From positions 1 to 41,228 of the IMG/VR virus record IMGVR_UViG_3300050821_002563: a stretch of DNA of 41,228 bases; one strand, 5' to 3'. A program made the position numbers and the translations under genes. This stretch comes from a virus. Positions 3,210-41,137 of this stretch are shown in pieces; within the stretch, counting starts at the first letter, position 1; each line of letters opens with the position of its first letter. The notes beneath the pieces were generated by a model. That model was given only the letters and a program-made list of their open reading frames with translations, was not told where the DNA came from and searched no databases.

Positions 3210-3283
3210 TGGTGCTCCAAACAAGAATCGAACTTGTGTCGCACGGTTATCAGCCGTGTGCTTTACCACTAAGCTACTGGAGC
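3210..3283 (-). tRNA. tRNA-Ile (GAT)
   Basis: Acceptor GCTCCAG/TTGGAGC with discriminator A and encoded CCA, D arm GCTT-AGTGGTA-AAGC, anticodon loop CTGATAA (GAT) on a perfect CACGG/CCGTG stem, T arm ACAAG-TTCGATT-CTTGT. Its first six bases are also the last six bases of the upstream tRNA-Ala. Confidence 0.95.
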
Positions 3284-3349
3284 CTAACGGAATCGAACCG
3301 TTGCCGCCTGGGTGCAAACCAAGTGCTCTACCAATTAAGCTAAGGCCCC
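3278..3349 (-). tRNA. tRNA-Ala (TGC), 3' end overlaps tRNA-Ile
   Basis: Acceptor GGGGCCT/AGGCTCC (7 pairs, one G-T), D arm GCTT-AATTGGTA-GAGC, anticodon loop TTTGCAC (TGC) on CTTGG/CCAGG, T arm AACGG-TTCGATT-CCGTT. The 3' acceptor strand and discriminator A run into the 5' strand of tRNA-Ile, sharing six bases (GCTCCA). CCA is therefore not encoded, and one primary transcript cannot give both complete tRNAs without end repair. Confidence 0.9.
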
Positions 3350-3439
3350 ATGTGAGACTCGCCAAGCCCGTCCTGGTCCCACCTCGCCCCTTCTGCCGGA
3401 CCATGCCTACCCCTGGCAGGACTGGCCTATCCAGGACTA
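3350..3439 (-). repeat. G-rich NNNGG-type spacer between tRNA-Gln and tRNA-Ala
   Basis: Read on the minus strand this 90-nt spacer is G-rich with GG about every five bases (ATAGG, GTAGG, CATGG, TCCGG, CGAGG, GGGAC). It has no ORF or cloverleaf. It matches in style the much longer tracts at 34208-34360 and 35034-35850, also on the transcribed strand and, in the longer case, also adjoining a tRNA. Confidence 0.6.
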
Positions 3440-3510
3440 TTCCCAGAGATGGATTCGAACCACCGTAAGCAGAATCAAAGTCTGCTGTCCTGCCGCTAGA
3501 CGATCTGGGA
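3440..3510 (-). tRNA. tRNA-Gln (TTG)
   Basis: Acceptor TCCCAGA/TCTGGGA, D arm GTCT-AGCGGCA-GGAC, anticodon stem GCAGA/TCTGC with loop CTTTGAT (TTG), variable TTAC, T arm GGTGG-TTCGAAT-CCATC, discriminator A, no encoded CCA. Its first base directly follows the TAA of the vWA gene with no spacer, so RNase P would have to cut at the stop codon of that mRNA. Confidence 0.93.
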
Positions 3511-4128
3511 TTATTTCTTGTCATCATCCGTCTCGTTGAGTTGATTGATATTACTCACCATTCCAGTAGAGGCGTAGTTAGAGCTGTAGACAGCATTACT
3601 TGTCATTAAATTAGTCACCTGTCCTTTACCAACGCTCATTGTTTGTGCTTGGAGGTTGCCATATCCAGAGGCTTGGTGCCAGTTGTCGAAGTCGATGCCC
3701 AGGAAGAGGACTTCGTAGCCGCGTTTGCGCATAGCTTCGAGCATGTCGCCAGCGGCTTTCTTGGTGACTTCGGTGCTAGCGTTTTCTTCTCCGTCGGTCA
3801 TGATAACGACAGAGGCGCGTTTAACGTTGGACTTCTCGACGATGCCGTTGAGTTTACCGATGGCGTCATTTAGAGGGGTGTTTCCGCGAGGTAGAAGTTC
3901 TGTGTCGCTAATGGGGTTCCAGTCTTTAGCGATGACGTTAGTGCGGATTACGTCAAAGCTAACGCTGTCGAAGACGGCGACAGTAATCGGTGCGTTCTTA
4001 GTGGCTTTCTCTTTGCCCAGACCTTCGGCGTAGGCGTTGACGCTTGCTACTGCTTCGGTCCAGCGAGTGGCCATGCTGGCTGAGCGGTCTAGAAGGACGA
4101 GGGCTGCGTAGTCGGTTTTCTTACTCAT
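3511..4128 (-). CDS. von Willebrand factor A (vWA) domain protein
   Basis: 205 aa, almost entirely one vWA domain. The MIDAS metal site is complete: D14-R-S16-A-S18, T84 in RGNTPLND, and D112 in IMTDGEEN. Hydrophobic strands lie between (YAALVLLD, ITVAVFD, ASVVIMTDG, EVLFLGID). The C-terminal 50 residues are Ser/Asn/Gln-rich. vWA proteins bind partner proteins through Mg2+ and often work with AAA+ ATPases; this genome has one at 39653-41137 in what would be the same leftward unit on a circular map. The start has a strong AAGGAGCAACAC leader. The role in the phage is unknown. Confidence 0.85.
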   Translation of the reverse strand: MSKKTDYAALVLLDRSASMATRWTEAVASVNAYAEGLGKEKATKNAPITVAVFDSVSFDVIRTNVIAKDWNPISDTELLPRGNTPLNDAIGKLNGIVEKSNVKRASVVIMTDGEENASTEVTKKAAGDMLEAMRKRGYEVLFLGIDFDNWHQASGYGNLQAQTMSVGKGQVTNLMTSNAVYSSNYASTGMVSNINQLNETDDDKK

Positions 4129-4210: not shown

Positions 4211-4285
4211 TAGTGCAACTGGGATTTGAACCCAGGATCTCTTGCTTTGACGGCAAGCGCTCTATCCAAACTGAGCTATTGCTGT
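4211..4285 (-). tRNA. Atypical tRNA with TCA (UGA-reading) anticodon
   Basis: D arm GCTC-AGTTTGGATA-GAGC, anticodon stem CTTGC/GCAAG, variable AGATC and T arm CTGGG-TTCAAAT-CCCAG are all sound. The anticodon loop is CGTCAAA, giving TCA at 34-36 with A37 A38 but G instead of the near-universal T at 33. The acceptor ACAGCAA/TTGCACT has two mismatches (C2-C71, A3-A70). It is either an opal-suppressor-like tRNA, a decaying tRNA, or one whose 5' end is changed by processing. CCA is not encoded. Confidence 0.6.
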
Positions 4286-4332
4286 TGGTTAGCCTCCCAT
4301 ACACTAACGGCGTTTAAACCGGCATATGATCT

Positions 4333-4407
4333 CTACAGACAGTCGTTCTACCGCTTAACTACATCGGGATGGACCCGATGCCAGGATTCGAACCTGGGTT
4401 TACTGTT
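4333..4407 (-). tRNA. Circularly permuted tRNA, probably Tyr (GTA)
   Basis: In transcription order the 3' half comes first: A38 (4407), ACAGT (39-43), AAAC, T arm CCAGG-TTCGAAT-CCTGG, acceptor CATCGGG (4380-4374), T73, CCA. After a single T comes the 5' half: acceptor CCCGATG (4368-4362), TA, D arm GTTA-AGCGGTA-GAAC, G26, ACTGT (27-31, 4343-4339), then CTGTAG (32-37). The acceptor pairs 7/7 and ACTGT pairs 5/5 with ACAGT; rejoined at 37/38 the molecule is a standard 74-nt tRNA with loop CTGTAGA. Flanks TGCC-GGTT (4324-4317) and AACC...GGCA (4423-4413) can pair and bring the ends together. No conventional partner for either half exists nearby. Confidence 0.78.
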
Positions 4408-4476
4408 GGTTTTGCCGATGGTTGAGATAGTGCTGGTGGATTTAGCTTGAGCTTCTCAGGAAGAACTTGAATTTCA

Positions 4477-4555
4477 GTAGGCGGGAATCCTCTAATCGCT
4501 GAGGTACCAGCCCGTGTGGTGGGCCGAGGGGGAGTCAAACCGCCCGACTTTTCCC
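4477..4555 (-). tRNA. Second circularly permuted tRNA, anticodon unresolved
   Basis: 3' half first: GGGAA (39-43, 4555-4551), a 6-nt variable region ending in CG, T arm GGCGG-TTTGACT-CCCCC (one C-C mismatch), acceptor TCGGCCC, A73, CCA. After linker CAC comes the 5' half: acceptor GGGCTGG (4513-4507), TA, D arm CCTC-AGCGATTA-GAGG, A26, TTCCC (27-31, 4487-4483), then GCCTAC. The acceptor pairs 7/7 with two G-T, and TTCCC pairs 5/5 with GGGAA. The usual G19-C56 contact is replaced by A19-T56, a compensatory pair linking D and T loops. The loop join is unclear: GCCTAC from one side, ATCTAA on the other. Confidence 0.68.
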
Positions 4556-4564
4556 TTAGATGCC

Positions 4565-4614
4565 GTATAAACTTAAGGTCTCAGCTTAAACTTGACTGAG
4601 ACCTCTAAGTATAC
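4565..4614 (-). terminator. Long hairpin between a CDS and the permuted tRNAs
   Basis: On the minus strand AGGTCTCAG (4604-4596) pairs with CTGAGACCT (4584-4576). The stem extends outward through CTTA/TAAG and GTATA/TATAC with a bulge. It follows the stop codon of the 178-aa gene by about 20 nt and precedes the first permuted tRNA half by about 10 nt. No T-run follows, so it may be a processing signal or mRNA 3' protection rather than a strict terminator. Confidence 0.5.
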
Positions 4615-4633
4615 CGCATATGGTGTGTTGTGA

Positions 4634-5170
4634 TCAAATTAGGGCGAGTTCTTTCTGTTCTTCTTGCTTGATCCCGGCTGGAAGTTTCTCTTTGACTGGG
4701 AATTTAGCGAAGATGGTTTGTTTCATCAAGTAGATGAGTTCCCTTTTTACCAAGAAGTGGTCTAATTTCCATGCGCTTGCATCATATTTAGCGATGAGGG
4801 CGTCAGAGAAGCCGGATCTTCCTGCCCAAGTATCGGTCATGTCCCGCATCTGGCAAGTGCTGTAGGGGCGTTTAGTGGTTGGGTGAGTCCATATGTGGCC
4901 AACGGGGTCGCTTTCAAAGCCGATGGCGGTCCAGAAGGCGGCCAGGAGGCAGCGCATGGGTCCGCTACAGTAGCAGCTTGTGGTTTTAGGGATGGCGTAG
5001 AAGCGGTCTATGTCTAGTGCTAGGTCTTGGAATGGGTGTGTATCCATGTTGCTGAAATCCTCTCTTGGGTATGCGAATGTTATGCCGGTCCAGATGCTTG
5101 GAAGGGTGCTTGGAAGGGGATATTTTATCGTCGCCAGTTCAGGTTTTGGTTCTCTCCAAAATGCGTCCAT
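4634..5170 (-). CDS. Paralogue A of a two-copy unknown family
   Basis: 178 aa. From residue 42 on it aligns with the protein at 5952-6392: HPFQDLALDIDRFY versus HIFDDLALNLQAFY, RCLLAAFWTAIGFE versus YCLLSAFWKAIGFK, and a shared 'FAKFP' near the end. This copy has an extra N-terminal 41 residues. The start at 5170 is supported by AAGGAGCAACAAC just upstream, the same leader type as the vWA gene. No known domain. The duplication flanks the DUF7873-like gene. Confidence 0.75.
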   Translation of the reverse strand: MDAFWREPKPELATIKYPLPSTLPSIWTGITFAYPREDFSNMDTHPFQDLALDIDRFYAIPKTTSCYCSGPMRCLLAAFWTAIGFESDPVGHIWTHPTTKRPYSTCQMRDMTDTWAGRSGFSDALIAKYDASAWKLDHFLVKRELIYLMKQTIFAKFPVKEKLPAGIKQEEQKELALI

Positions 5171-5182
5171 GTTGTTGCTCCT

Positions 5183-5938
5183 TTATTCAGCCAGTAGGTA
5201 GCCGAAGATATTTTTACCGAGGGTTCTGTCGATCACGGTGGCAGAGTTAGCGCGTTCTCGTGCTTGTTTAACGGCATCGAGGAGGCGGTTAACACGTTGC
5301 CACATGTGGAGTTTGTCTTCCACGGGGATGGCAGAGGTGGTCTTTGTGGTTTCCCAGTGGCCGATGATGATATCTTCGGTGGTGGTTTTCACTTGGGCGG
5401 GGTGTTTTTCGGTCGCTTCGTAGAGGACCAGAGGGCGTTCTACCTTTTTAGTTCTAGAGACTCGTTCAGGTTCGGTGCGGTAGATCATTGAGTTGCTCTT
5501 GTCCTGATCCCATTTCTCGGCGGTGTCGTGGATGGGCAGACCTTGGATGAAGGTTCTGAGATCTTCCAGTTCTTTCTCCAAGAAGATGAGGGTAGTGGCA
5601 GGTACTTCGGCAGCGATTACGGTCTCACCGATGATGATATCTGCGCGAGCGGTGGCGTTGGTCAAGTCTTTGCTCAGTTCGATGTCGAAGACTTCGGTGC
5701 GGAGGTCTACGTACTGGGTGATCATTTCGGGAGCGAAGGCTTGGATCTTCTTGTTTTCTGGTGGGAAGACTTCGGAGTCTTCGTGTAGGGGGAGCCATTT
5801 CTTGTGGTGGCCGTTGAAGAGATCGGTGCGAGGGAGGACGCGTTGCATCTCGCCAATTTTGTCGTAGGAGCGTTTCTTAACGCCCTTTTCGATGGCCAGT
5901 AGTTCGTGGAGTTTCTTAGTTTTAGTTTGAGTAGTCAT
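5183..5938 (-). CDS. DUF7873-like conserved phage protein
   Basis: 251 aa. The opening KKLHELLAIEKG, the central 'PATTLIFLEKELEDLRTFI' and 'LYEATEKHPAQVK', and the late 'RVNRLLDAVKQARERAN' with a 'GKNIFGYLL' end match a family I know from phages and actinobacteria, recently named DUF7873. The function is not known. Length and order of blocks look complete. It is soluble with mixed alpha/beta content. It lies between the two paralogues of another family, with spacers of 12-13 nt and a GGAAAAGCAAC leader. Confidence 0.75.
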   Translation of the reverse strand: MTTQTKTKKLHELLAIEKGVKKRSYDKIGEMQRVLPRTDLFNGHHKKWLPLHEDSEVFPPENKKIQAFAPEMITQYVDLRTEVFDIELSKDLTNATARADIIIGETVIAAEVPATTLIFLEKELEDLRTFIQGLPIHDTAEKWDQDKSNSMIYRTEPERVSRTKKVERPLVLYEATEKHPAQVKTTTEDIIIGHWETTKTTSAIPVEDKLHMWQRVNRLLDAVKQARERANSATVIDRTLGKNIFGYLLAE

Positions 5939-39652: not shown

Positions 39653-41137
39653 CTAGTTGTTATCTCTTCCCTCAAGAGCATATAGAGGCTTGTCATTAGG
39701 CGAGTCCTGGCTGACATGTCTTAAAAGCCTTGATCTAATGGCATTACTGCCAATATTCTCAAGAGCCCCTACTAGAGTGCTGCCGAAAGCAGCTCCAAAT
39801 TGTTCCGCTTCAGTCTTGGGCTGTTGTGCTTTCATTCGTAGTGCCTCCCGTTGCCCTCTCATGCCGATAGCCGCATGATAGAGATCGTCTACTGTCAGAC
39901 TGAGCTTATACTTATTACCACTAGTCGTAGCATTACCACGTCCGATAGCAGCAAGCTTGGCTTTCTCAACACATTCACCAATAACAGCCGGGATCTCTCC
40001 CTCTAATTCAGCGCCTACTCTTGAGAGATCGGCCTCAAGTGGGATAAGACCACGTCCGTATAAGCGGAGCAGCTTTTGCACGGCCTCAGCGTCCGGGGCA
40101 TGAACATGAATTAGAGCATCCATGCGGCCAGGCCGTAGCATTGCCCTAGTTATCTGCTCCAGGTGATTCGTAGTCAGCACAGTAATGATCTCGACTGCCT
40201 TAGAGTCGACTCCATCCAAGGTGTTGAGAATATCGTTAAGGTGCTGATCACGGTCTCCATTTGTGACAGTATCGATATCCTCACAAAATACAACAGCCGG
40301 ACTATAGGTCTTGATGAAATTAAGGGCCTCAGGTAATTCCGAAGCCTTGCGTATGTACACAAATGTCCAACCGTTATCCTCACAATGCTTGGCCGTATGA
40401 TATGCGGTGAGCGTTTTACCACACCCATATGGGCCAGCAAGCAATATCCCTCTCTTGAGAGGTATTTTGTGATTACGGCATTCTTGAGAATATTTGATCG
40501 GAGTGAACAAATTAGTCTCAATTGCTGCTTTCACGTCTTCCGCAAAGATAAGGCCCTCGCTCTCAACTTTTGAGAGATCAAGGAATTTAGGGTGAATCAT
40601 TTGAATCGGCTTCCCGTTGTCACTCCGAAACTCAACACGGAAAGCCTTACCACGATAGATAGACTCTGTTTTGACTATCGCTTTGATCTCATCAACTAGC
40701 TGATTGAATAGCGGTTGATATTTGCGCCTCATTTCTCCACCTAGGCTAAATACCATGCGGCCGTCTGTCATGTGAGTACCTGTACCAATGTATCCATCTT
40801 TGCCGAATTGAGAGATCTTGAATGTTCCCCAAGGCACCTGAACAGATGTCTTGTGTCCTGTCTCCACCGTGATCATTTGAGGCGGTGAGTCACCGAAGAA
40901 GCCAGGGGTTGGCACTGCAATACAGTAGCCAAATAGCTTCTCCATTGCTTTTACCATTGCTAGTGCGCCATCCCATACAAACGATTCAATCACTGCCCCG
41001 ACTCCAATGATCTGTTCATCTTCGTCAGACTTGCGATAGAGCATGTCGGCCGCTTCTCGATACTCTAATTTCTCAGGAACAATGAGCTTATCCCCAATCT
41101 TCTCAATTTCAGCCAATTTAATAGGTTTCATACCCAT
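39653..41137 (-). CDS. AAA+ ATPase (classic AAA family)
   Basis: 494 aa. The N-terminal 200 residues are a mixed beta-type adaptor domain. AAA module: Walker A GPYGCGKT (235-242), Walker B VVFCEDID (282-289), sensor 1 TTN (322-324) and arginine fingers in RPGRMD (335-340), the classic spastin/CDC48-like arrangement rather than MoxR. A short Gln/Lys-rich C-terminus follows. Such proteins form hexamers that remodel or unfold proteins. A partner could be the vWA protein at 3511. Transcription starts from the right copy of the 98-bp repeat, as for the opposing operon. Confidence 0.88.
   Translation of the reverse strand: MGMKPIKLAEIEKIGDKLIVPEKLEYREAADMLYRKSDEDEQIIGVGAVIESFVWDGALAMVKAMEKLFGYCIAVPTPGFFGDSPPQMITVETGHKTSVQVPWGTFKISQFGKDGYIGTGTHMTDGRMVFSLGGEMRRKYQPLFNQLVDEIKAIVKTESIYRGKAFRVEFRSDNGKPIQMIHPKFLDLSKVESEGLIFAEDVKAAIETNLFTPIKYSQECRNHKIPLKRGILLAGPYGCGKTLTAYHTAKHCEDNGWTFVYIRKASELPEALNFIKTYSPAVVFCEDIDTVTNGDRDQHLNDILNTLDGVDSKAVEIITVLTTNHLEQITRAMLRPGRMDALIHVHAPDAEAVQKLLRLYGRGLIPLEADLSRVGAELEGEIPAVIGECVEKAKLAAIGRGNATTSGNKYKLSLTVDDLYHAAIGMRGQREALRMKAQQPKTEAEQFGAAFGSTLVGALENIGSNAIRSRLLRHVSQDSPNDKPLYALEGRDNN

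What the first reader, a model, noticed from the sequence alone, without database searches (positions are those of the whole stretch)
4333..4407. Circularly permuted tRNA gene (probable tRNA-Tyr) in a phage
On the minus strand the T arm and acceptor 3' strand with CCA come before the acceptor 5' strand and D arm. Acceptor CATCGGG/CCCGATG pairs 7 of 7 across a one-base linker, and the anticodon stem ACTGT/ACAGT pairs 5 of 5 only if the outer ends are joined. The rebuilt molecule is a canonical 74-nt tRNA with loop CTGTAGA. Permuted tRNAs are known from some red and green algae and archaea, where a splicing endonuclease joins the ends; a phage one would need another route. I see no room for a group I intron.
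Basis: partly seen in the sequence, partly recalled or inferred. Interest (0 to 1): 0.95.

Follow-up and report, generated by a model that had tools for sequence, protein, structure and literature searches.

The report
Phage Y RNAs that mimic tRNA
The apparent inside-out tRNA gene is real sequence, but it is best read as one of two phage-borne YrlA-type Y RNAs, a known class of small RNA that folds like a tRNA and does not have to be cut and rejoined.

Summary
In detail: at 4339-4406 (minus strand) a T arm and 3' acceptor strand precede the 5' acceptor strand and D arm, with 7/7, 5/5, 5/5 and 3/4 pairs.

The interpretation as a permuted tRNA gene is not supported. Rfam's best match for 4316-4418 is YrlA, the bacterial Y RNA whose effector domain is a tRNA-like module in exactly this order, capped by a hairpin loop. 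A covariance model built from 20 similar modules in other viral contigs, without the window, finds module B at 50.4 bits and A at 36.6. Twelve of 18 viral records with such modules encode a Ro60-like protein (usually directly downstream of the RNA where positions were checked), against 0 of 20 control records. No split of the loop gives a splicing motif, and module A has no U33 under any join.

Two features are less ordinary. Both window modules carry N-CCA in the acceptor loop (none of about 25 relatives do). The window also has no detectable Ro60; a vWA-only gene sits where Ro60 usually lies. No RNA data were available.

The parts
4339..4406 (-). Module B: permuted tRNA-like core of a YrlA-type Y RNA (anticodon-type stem 4406-4402/4343-4339, T arm 4397-4381, acceptor hairpin 4380-4374/4368-4362, D arm 4359-4345)
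   Evidence: R1 model built without the window: 50.4 bits, E=4e-16; scanner; Rfam YrlA 28.3 bits
4369..4373 (-). Acceptor hairpin loop UCCAU of B (N-CCA at the tRNA 73-76 position plus one base)
   Evidence: read directly; N-CCA not seen in about 25 other viral modules
4413..4419 (-). 5' strand AUCGGCA of the proposed outer (basal) stem of B
   Evidence: pairs 7 bp with 4324-4318 in the minimum free energy fold; not significant on its own, p about 0.1
4318..4324 (-). 3' strand UGCCGGU of the proposed outer stem of B
   Evidence: also paired in the Rfam YrlA alignment spanning 4316-4418
4483..4555 (-). Module A: second permuted tRNA-like core (stem GGGAA/UUCCC 4555-4551/4487-4483; T arm 4544-4528 with loop UUUGACU; acceptor UCGGCCC-ACCACAC-GGGCUGG 4527-4507; D arm 4504-4489)
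   Evidence: scanner; R1 36.6 bits, E=3.5e-11; MFE and centroid fold equal the module; Rfam YrlA only 14.3 bits
4466..4577 (-). Possible extent of RNA A: GGC/GCC extension next to the module and a candidate outer stem CUUAAGUUU/AAAUUCAAG with one mismatch
   Evidence: GGC/GCC in the fold; the outer stem was seen by eye and is not significant
4211..4285 (-). Normal-order tRNA with anticodon TCA between the Y RNAs and the vWA gene; loop CGUCAAA has no U33, acceptor has two mismatches
   Evidence: ARAGORN; Rfam tRNA 51.7 bits
3511..4128 (-). 205-aa von Willebrand factor A (vWA) domain protein, first protein gene downstream of the two RNAs
   Evidence: VWA_CoxE E=6.7e-6 and VWA_2 E=1.9e-4, both just below Pfam cut-offs; PHROG 7371 E=5e-28

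Best explanation
Modules B and A are two tandem phage-encoded Y RNAs of the YrlA type. Each linear transcript folds into a tRNA-shaped effector module (T arm, hairpin-capped acceptor stem, D arm, closed by an anticodon-type stem) on a basal stem made by its two ends. The ends stay apart; nothing is circularised. By analogy with YrlA, the basal stem would bind a Ro60-type ring protein of the host, or the downstream vWA protein, while the tRNA-like module engages tRNA-binding or RNA-decay enzymes such as PNPase, or acts as a decoy. Shown here: architecture, fold, family match and genomic context. Inferred: expression, protein partners and function.
For: Rfam YrlA is the best family for 4316-4418 (28.3 bits, E=5e-4 on 531 bases, full length 1-114). 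Model R1, from 20 viral modules excluding the window, gives B 50.4 bits and A 36.6 bits; the best mis-spliced neighbour tRNA pair gives 31. The modules used to build R1 match YrlA at E down to 1e-10 and show strong covariation: 147 cells with both sides changed against 45 in shuffles, 95% of cells paired. Ro60-like genes (Pfam TROVE or profile A3) are in 12 of 18 records with modules and 0 of 20 control records, often as the next gene downstream of the RNA, 150-450 bp away. Layouts parallel to the window: L003 YrlB-YrlA-YrlA-vWA; L020 YrlA-Ro60-vWA; L005/L008 Ro60-vWA. Review text describes YrlA as a basal stem plus a domain resembling D, T and acceptor arms (PMC8394870); Y RNAs have been reported in mycobacteriophages and other phages (PMC12282133, PMC7765460).
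Against: B scores below Rfam's YrlA gathering threshold (28 against 69), and A is far below (14.3). However, none of 15 viral loci with modules reached that threshold either. The basal stems are short and not significant alone. No Ro60 was found in this 41-kb record. The acceptor loops hold N-CCA, which the other viral modules lack. The vWA family also occurs in phages without nearby Ro60 or YrlA. Tandem ordinary tRNAs can score up to about 60 bits with R1, so the score of A counts only because neither half belongs to a recognisable normal tRNA.
Confidence: 0.82

Rival explanations
1. A true circularly permuted tRNA gene (or two): the transcript ends are joined in the anticodon loop, the short acceptor loop is cut out, and a canonical tRNA-Tyr(GUA) results.
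For: 7/7 acceptor and 5/5 anticodon stem; ARAGORN calls the rejoined B a tRNA-Tyr; encoded CCA with a 1-nt linker is known for a Thermofilum pendens permuted tRNA gene (PMC3978253); both modules have N-CCA, unlike the ~25 other viral modules.
Against: No BHB motif for any of the 8 ways to split the loop in A or B, and no join gives A a U33. Known permuted tRNAs are from algae and one archaeon, whereas the other tRNAs here look bacterial, and bacterial tRNA-Tyr has a long variable arm (own knowledge). Discriminator U73 does not fit Tyr. Same-order modules with non-CCA loops lie next to Ro60 genes.
Confidence: 0.06
2. Decayed tRNA array: tandem duplicated tRNAs lost their outer halves, leaving adjacent 3' and 5' halves without function.
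For: The locus lies among other tRNA genes, the N-CCA looks inherited from tRNA 3' ends, and A has a mismatched T stem.
Against: The anticodon-type stems pair 5/5 in both modules although they are the outer ends; decay would not keep this twice. Position 19-56 in A is A-U instead of G-C, a compensatory pair. A folds exactly as the module. Related modules covary strongly.
Confidence: 0.1
3. A permuted group I intron (PIE) or other ribozyme excises and circularises the tRNA exon.
For: It would explain a permuted exon in a phage without a splicing endonuclease; no tool result supports it.
Against: No group I, group II or small ribozyme match in the window at gathering scores or around the locus at permissive E-values; the flanks of 30-75 nt are too short for a group I core.
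Confidence: 0.02

Closest known systems
YrlA Y RNAs (Rfam RF02553), e.g. of the Salmonella rsr-yrlBA-rtcBA operon
   Same: Order T arm - acceptor-like hairpin - D arm inside a closing stem; ends form a basal stem; tandem RNAs next to a Ro/vWA gene; already reported in phages
   Different: B is below the Rfam gathering score; 7-bp acceptor with N-CCA in the loop; weak basal stem; no Ro60 (TROVE) gene found in the record, only a vWA protein
Viral YrlA-Ro60 cassettes found here (L155, L193, L196, L124, L037, L020, L003)
   Same: Same module architecture; one or two modules before the protein gene; L003 has two modules before a vWA gene 38% identical to the window's
   Different: Most encode a full Ro60-like (TROVE or DUF2828-DUF7788) protein; acceptor loops are tetraloops or other non-CCA loops
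Circularly permuted tRNA genes of Cyanidioschyzon, green algae and Thermofilum pendens
   Same: Half order, junction near the anticodon loop, and in T. pendens encoded CCA with a 1-nt linker
   Different: No BHB motif at the junction, bacterial-type setting, no U33 in module A, hairpin-capped relatives

Membership tests
YrlA Y RNA (RF02553) | Permuted tRNA-like module: T arm, hairpin-capped acceptor-like stem, D arm, closing stem | tested here: met
   model R1 excludes the window
YrlA Y RNA (RF02553) | Score at or above the Rfam gathering cut-off (69 bits) | tested here: not met
   B 28.3 bits, A 14.3 bits; 15 other viral loci with modules also fail, so the cut-off seems too strict for phage members. 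Filed as YrlA-type, not as an Rfam-grade member
YrlA Y RNA (RF02553) | Basal stem between the RNA's 5' and 3' ends | tested here: inconclusive
   B: 7 bp in MFE and centroid, p about 0.1; A: short GGC/GCC extension
YrlA Y RNA (RF02553) | Gene lies near a Ro60/Rsr gene | tested here: not met
   No TROVE or A3 profile match in the record; a vWA-only gene is there instead; the record may be incomplete
YrlA Y RNA (RF02553) | Binds Ro60/Rsr and PNPase; carries tRNA-type modifications | not testable with these tools
   needs bench work
Circularly permuted tRNA gene | 3' half before 5' half, full cloverleaf after joining | tested here: met
   B: ARAGORN tRNA-Tyr. A: no tRNA called with a loop made only of its own 5' flank (GCCTACT); called tRNA-Arg(tct) with loop CATCTAA, which lacks U33
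Circularly permuted tRNA gene | BHB motif at the junction, cut by tRNA-splicing endonuclease | tested here: not met
   No split gives the 4-bp central helix with both flanking helices
Circularly permuted tRNA gene | Circular intermediate and mature tRNA | not testable with these tools
   needs RNA sequencing
Permuted group I intron (PIE) | Group I core in the flanks | tested here: not met
   no match

The most novel reading that the evidence does not exclude
The two N-CCA-bearing modules are dual-purpose: YrlA-like transcripts that a phage or host nuclease-ligase pair can turn into real, chargeable tRNAs, which would be the first permuted tRNA genes in a bacterial virus known to me.
Probability: 0.05. 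Interest if true: 0.92.

Novelty: new member of a known kind. Interest (0 to 1): 0.36.

Why it matters
It resolves a striking permuted-tRNA signal in a phage into a known but under-annotated RNA class. Phage Y RNAs score well below Rfam's cut-off, so genome annotation misses them; a model built from phage members finds them readily, often next to Ro60-like genes. The window and L003 raise a testable question: can a vWA-only protein stand in for Ro60 as the Y RNA partner? Also, any survey of permuted tRNA genes in bacteria or phages must first exclude YrlA RNAs.

Tried and rejected
Relatives of the neighbouring proteins 4634-5170, DUF7873 (5183-5938) and the terminase in viral contigs, and DUF7873 in genome contigs: none found, so no close relative of this phage was available for direct conservation tests. 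DNA similarity of the locus in phages: only the ordinary tRNA matched. The exact acceptor pattern CATCGGG-N-CCA-CCCGATG in viral contigs gave 40 loci in which the scanner found no such module; 20 of their records served as the no-Ro60 control. Group I intron, BHB splicing and ribozymes: rejected. The idea that the window's vWA protein is a trimmed Ro60: its sequence does not match the vWA part of phage Ro60s beyond noise and it finds no Ro60 in the PDB, so it is only a positional guess. The vWA gene is not generally tied to Y RNAs.

Full report
Observation. On the minus strand, 4406-4339 reads ACAGT AAAC CCAGG TTCGAAT CCTGG CATCGGG TCCAT CCCGATG TA GTTA AGCGGTA GAAC G ACTGT. A scanner written for the purpose finds exactly two permuted modules in the window and none in 400 dinucleotide-preserving shuffles or 0.8 Mb of other viral sequence. 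In A the conserved tertiary pair G19-C56 appears to be replaced by A19-U56 (read from the sequence).

What it is. A permissive Rfam search of the locus gave YrlA (RF02553, Y RNA-like A) for 4316-4418 at 28.3 bits, E=5e-4, over the whole model; module A matches the same family only weakly (14.3 bits). YrlA RNAs consist of a basal stem formed by the two ends and a domain resembling D, T and acceptor arms (PMC8394870). In the Rfam model the order is T arm, acceptor-like hairpin, D arm, which is the order seen here. The permuted order is therefore the normal order of a YrlA RNA.

Relatives. About 25 modules did not overlap normal tRNAs. Their acceptor hairpins are mostly capped by loops such as UUCG, GCAA, GCUUGC or CGAAAG. 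None of 15 such loci reached the Rfam gathering score for YrlA, but seven searched permissively all matched YrlA, at E down to 1e-10. Twenty modules, excluding the window, were aligned. The named structure shows 95% paired cells and 147 double-sided changes against 45 in shuffles; sliding the structure destroys it. Caveat: those modules were selected by the scanner for pairing, so the pairing percentage is inflated. Model R1 built from them finds B at 50.4 bits (E=4e-16) and A at 36.6 bits (E=3.5e-11). Genuine tRNA neighbours in the window give at most 31. In tRNA-rich contigs, tandem normal tRNAs can reach about 60 bits, so the score alone is not proof for A.

Context. Ro60/Rsr is the protein partner of Y RNAs. 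Of 18 viral records with modules, Pfam TROVE finds a Ro60-like gene in 8, and a broader profile, A3, raises this to 12. None of 20 control viral records matched with either. PHROG 850 (RNA-binding protein) unites the TROVE and DUF2828-DUF7788 forms. The Ro60-like gene is commonly the first gene downstream of the RNA, 150-450 bp away. In the window the first protein gene downstream of A and B is a 205-aa vWA protein (3511-4128). Its relatives sit directly downstream of Ro60 in L020 (YrlA-Ro60-vWA) and L005/L008, and directly downstream of two YrlA modules, preceded by a YrlB match, in L003. No Ro60 is detectable in the window, though the record is linear and may be incomplete. The same vWA family occurs in many phages without nearby Ro60 or YrlA, so the link is suggestive only.

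Why not a permuted tRNA gene. Known permuted tRNA genes (algae, T. pendens) have BHB motifs at the junction (PMC3978253). All eight ways of dividing a 7-nt loop between the two ends were tested in A and B: none gives a BHB, and none gives A a U33. The anticodon of B is undetermined by sequence. Other tRNAs of the phage look bacterial: Arg ACG and Gln with U1-A72 (identity rules from own knowledge). Bacterial tRNA-Tyr is class II with A73, whereas rejoined B is class I with U73 (own knowledge). The linear RNAs fold unaided: A into exactly the module; B into its T arm, acceptor hairpin and a 7-bp basal stem, although B's MFE does not include the anticodon-type stem. Folding stability is modest (z = -2.4 for B, -0.2 for A).

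What remains odd. Both window modules hold N-CCA in the acceptor loop (B U-CCA-U; A A-CCA-CAC), and none of about 25 other viral modules does. T. pendens has permuted tRNA genes with CCA and, in one, a 1-nt linker. This is why a small probability is kept for a functional permuted tRNA. A recent origin from duplicated tRNA genes explains it equally well.

Mechanism. Shown: order, pairing, fold, family resemblance, genomic neighbourhood in relatives. Inferred from YrlA work: the basal stem binds a Ro60-type protein and the tRNA-like module engages PNPase or tRNA-recognising enzymes (PMC8394870), or competes with an anticodon nuclease, a role proposed for YrlA in PMC7790460. In this phage the partner could be a host Rsr or the vWA protein.

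Verdict. Real feature, known kind; the phage members are below Rfam's detection limit. No expression data were available.

Noticed in passing
window 3210-3350 (minus): tRNA-Ala (3277-3350) and tRNA-Ile (3210-3283) overlap by 7 nt: the 3' acceptor end of Ala is also the 5' acceptor strand of Ile, so one transcript cannot give both complete tRNAs by ordinary processing.
   Followed up: no
window 4211-4285 (minus): tRNA called SeC/UGA-suppressor (TCA) with loop CGUCAAA (G33 instead of U33) and a mismatched acceptor; its body is 81% identical to tRNA-Arg of Bacteroides phages DAC15/DAC17.
   Followed up: partly
window 3392-3440 (minus): After tRNA-Gln the spacer can pair with the Gln acceptor (TCTGGGA-ATAG-TCCTGGA) and looks weakly like another permuted module (R1 26 bits); about 90 nt of structured spacer.
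   Followed up: no
window 4560-4625 (minus): Long near-perfect hairpin AGGTCTCAGTCAAGTTTAAGCTGAGACCT just upstream of module A, without a T run.
   Followed up: no
window 39653-41137 (minus): AAA+ ATPase of PHROG 10440, 41-46% identical to genes of N4-like and other phages; AAA+ and vWA proteins often work as pairs (MoxR/CoxE type), so it may partner the vWA protein.
   Followed up: no
L020 3969-4109: YrlA module with a 74-nt insertion in the acceptor hairpin loop, followed by Ro60-like and vWA genes.
   Followed up: partly
L172 and its record (G014): Viral record with ROOL RNA, a group I intron, many tRNAs and YrlA modules; its Ro60-like frame has an in-frame TAG, which may mean stop-codon reassignment.
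   Followed up: no
Viral-contig collection: YrlA-type RNAs in phages score 30-58 bits with Rfam RF02553 (cut-off 69) and are therefore missed by standard annotation.
   Followed up: yes
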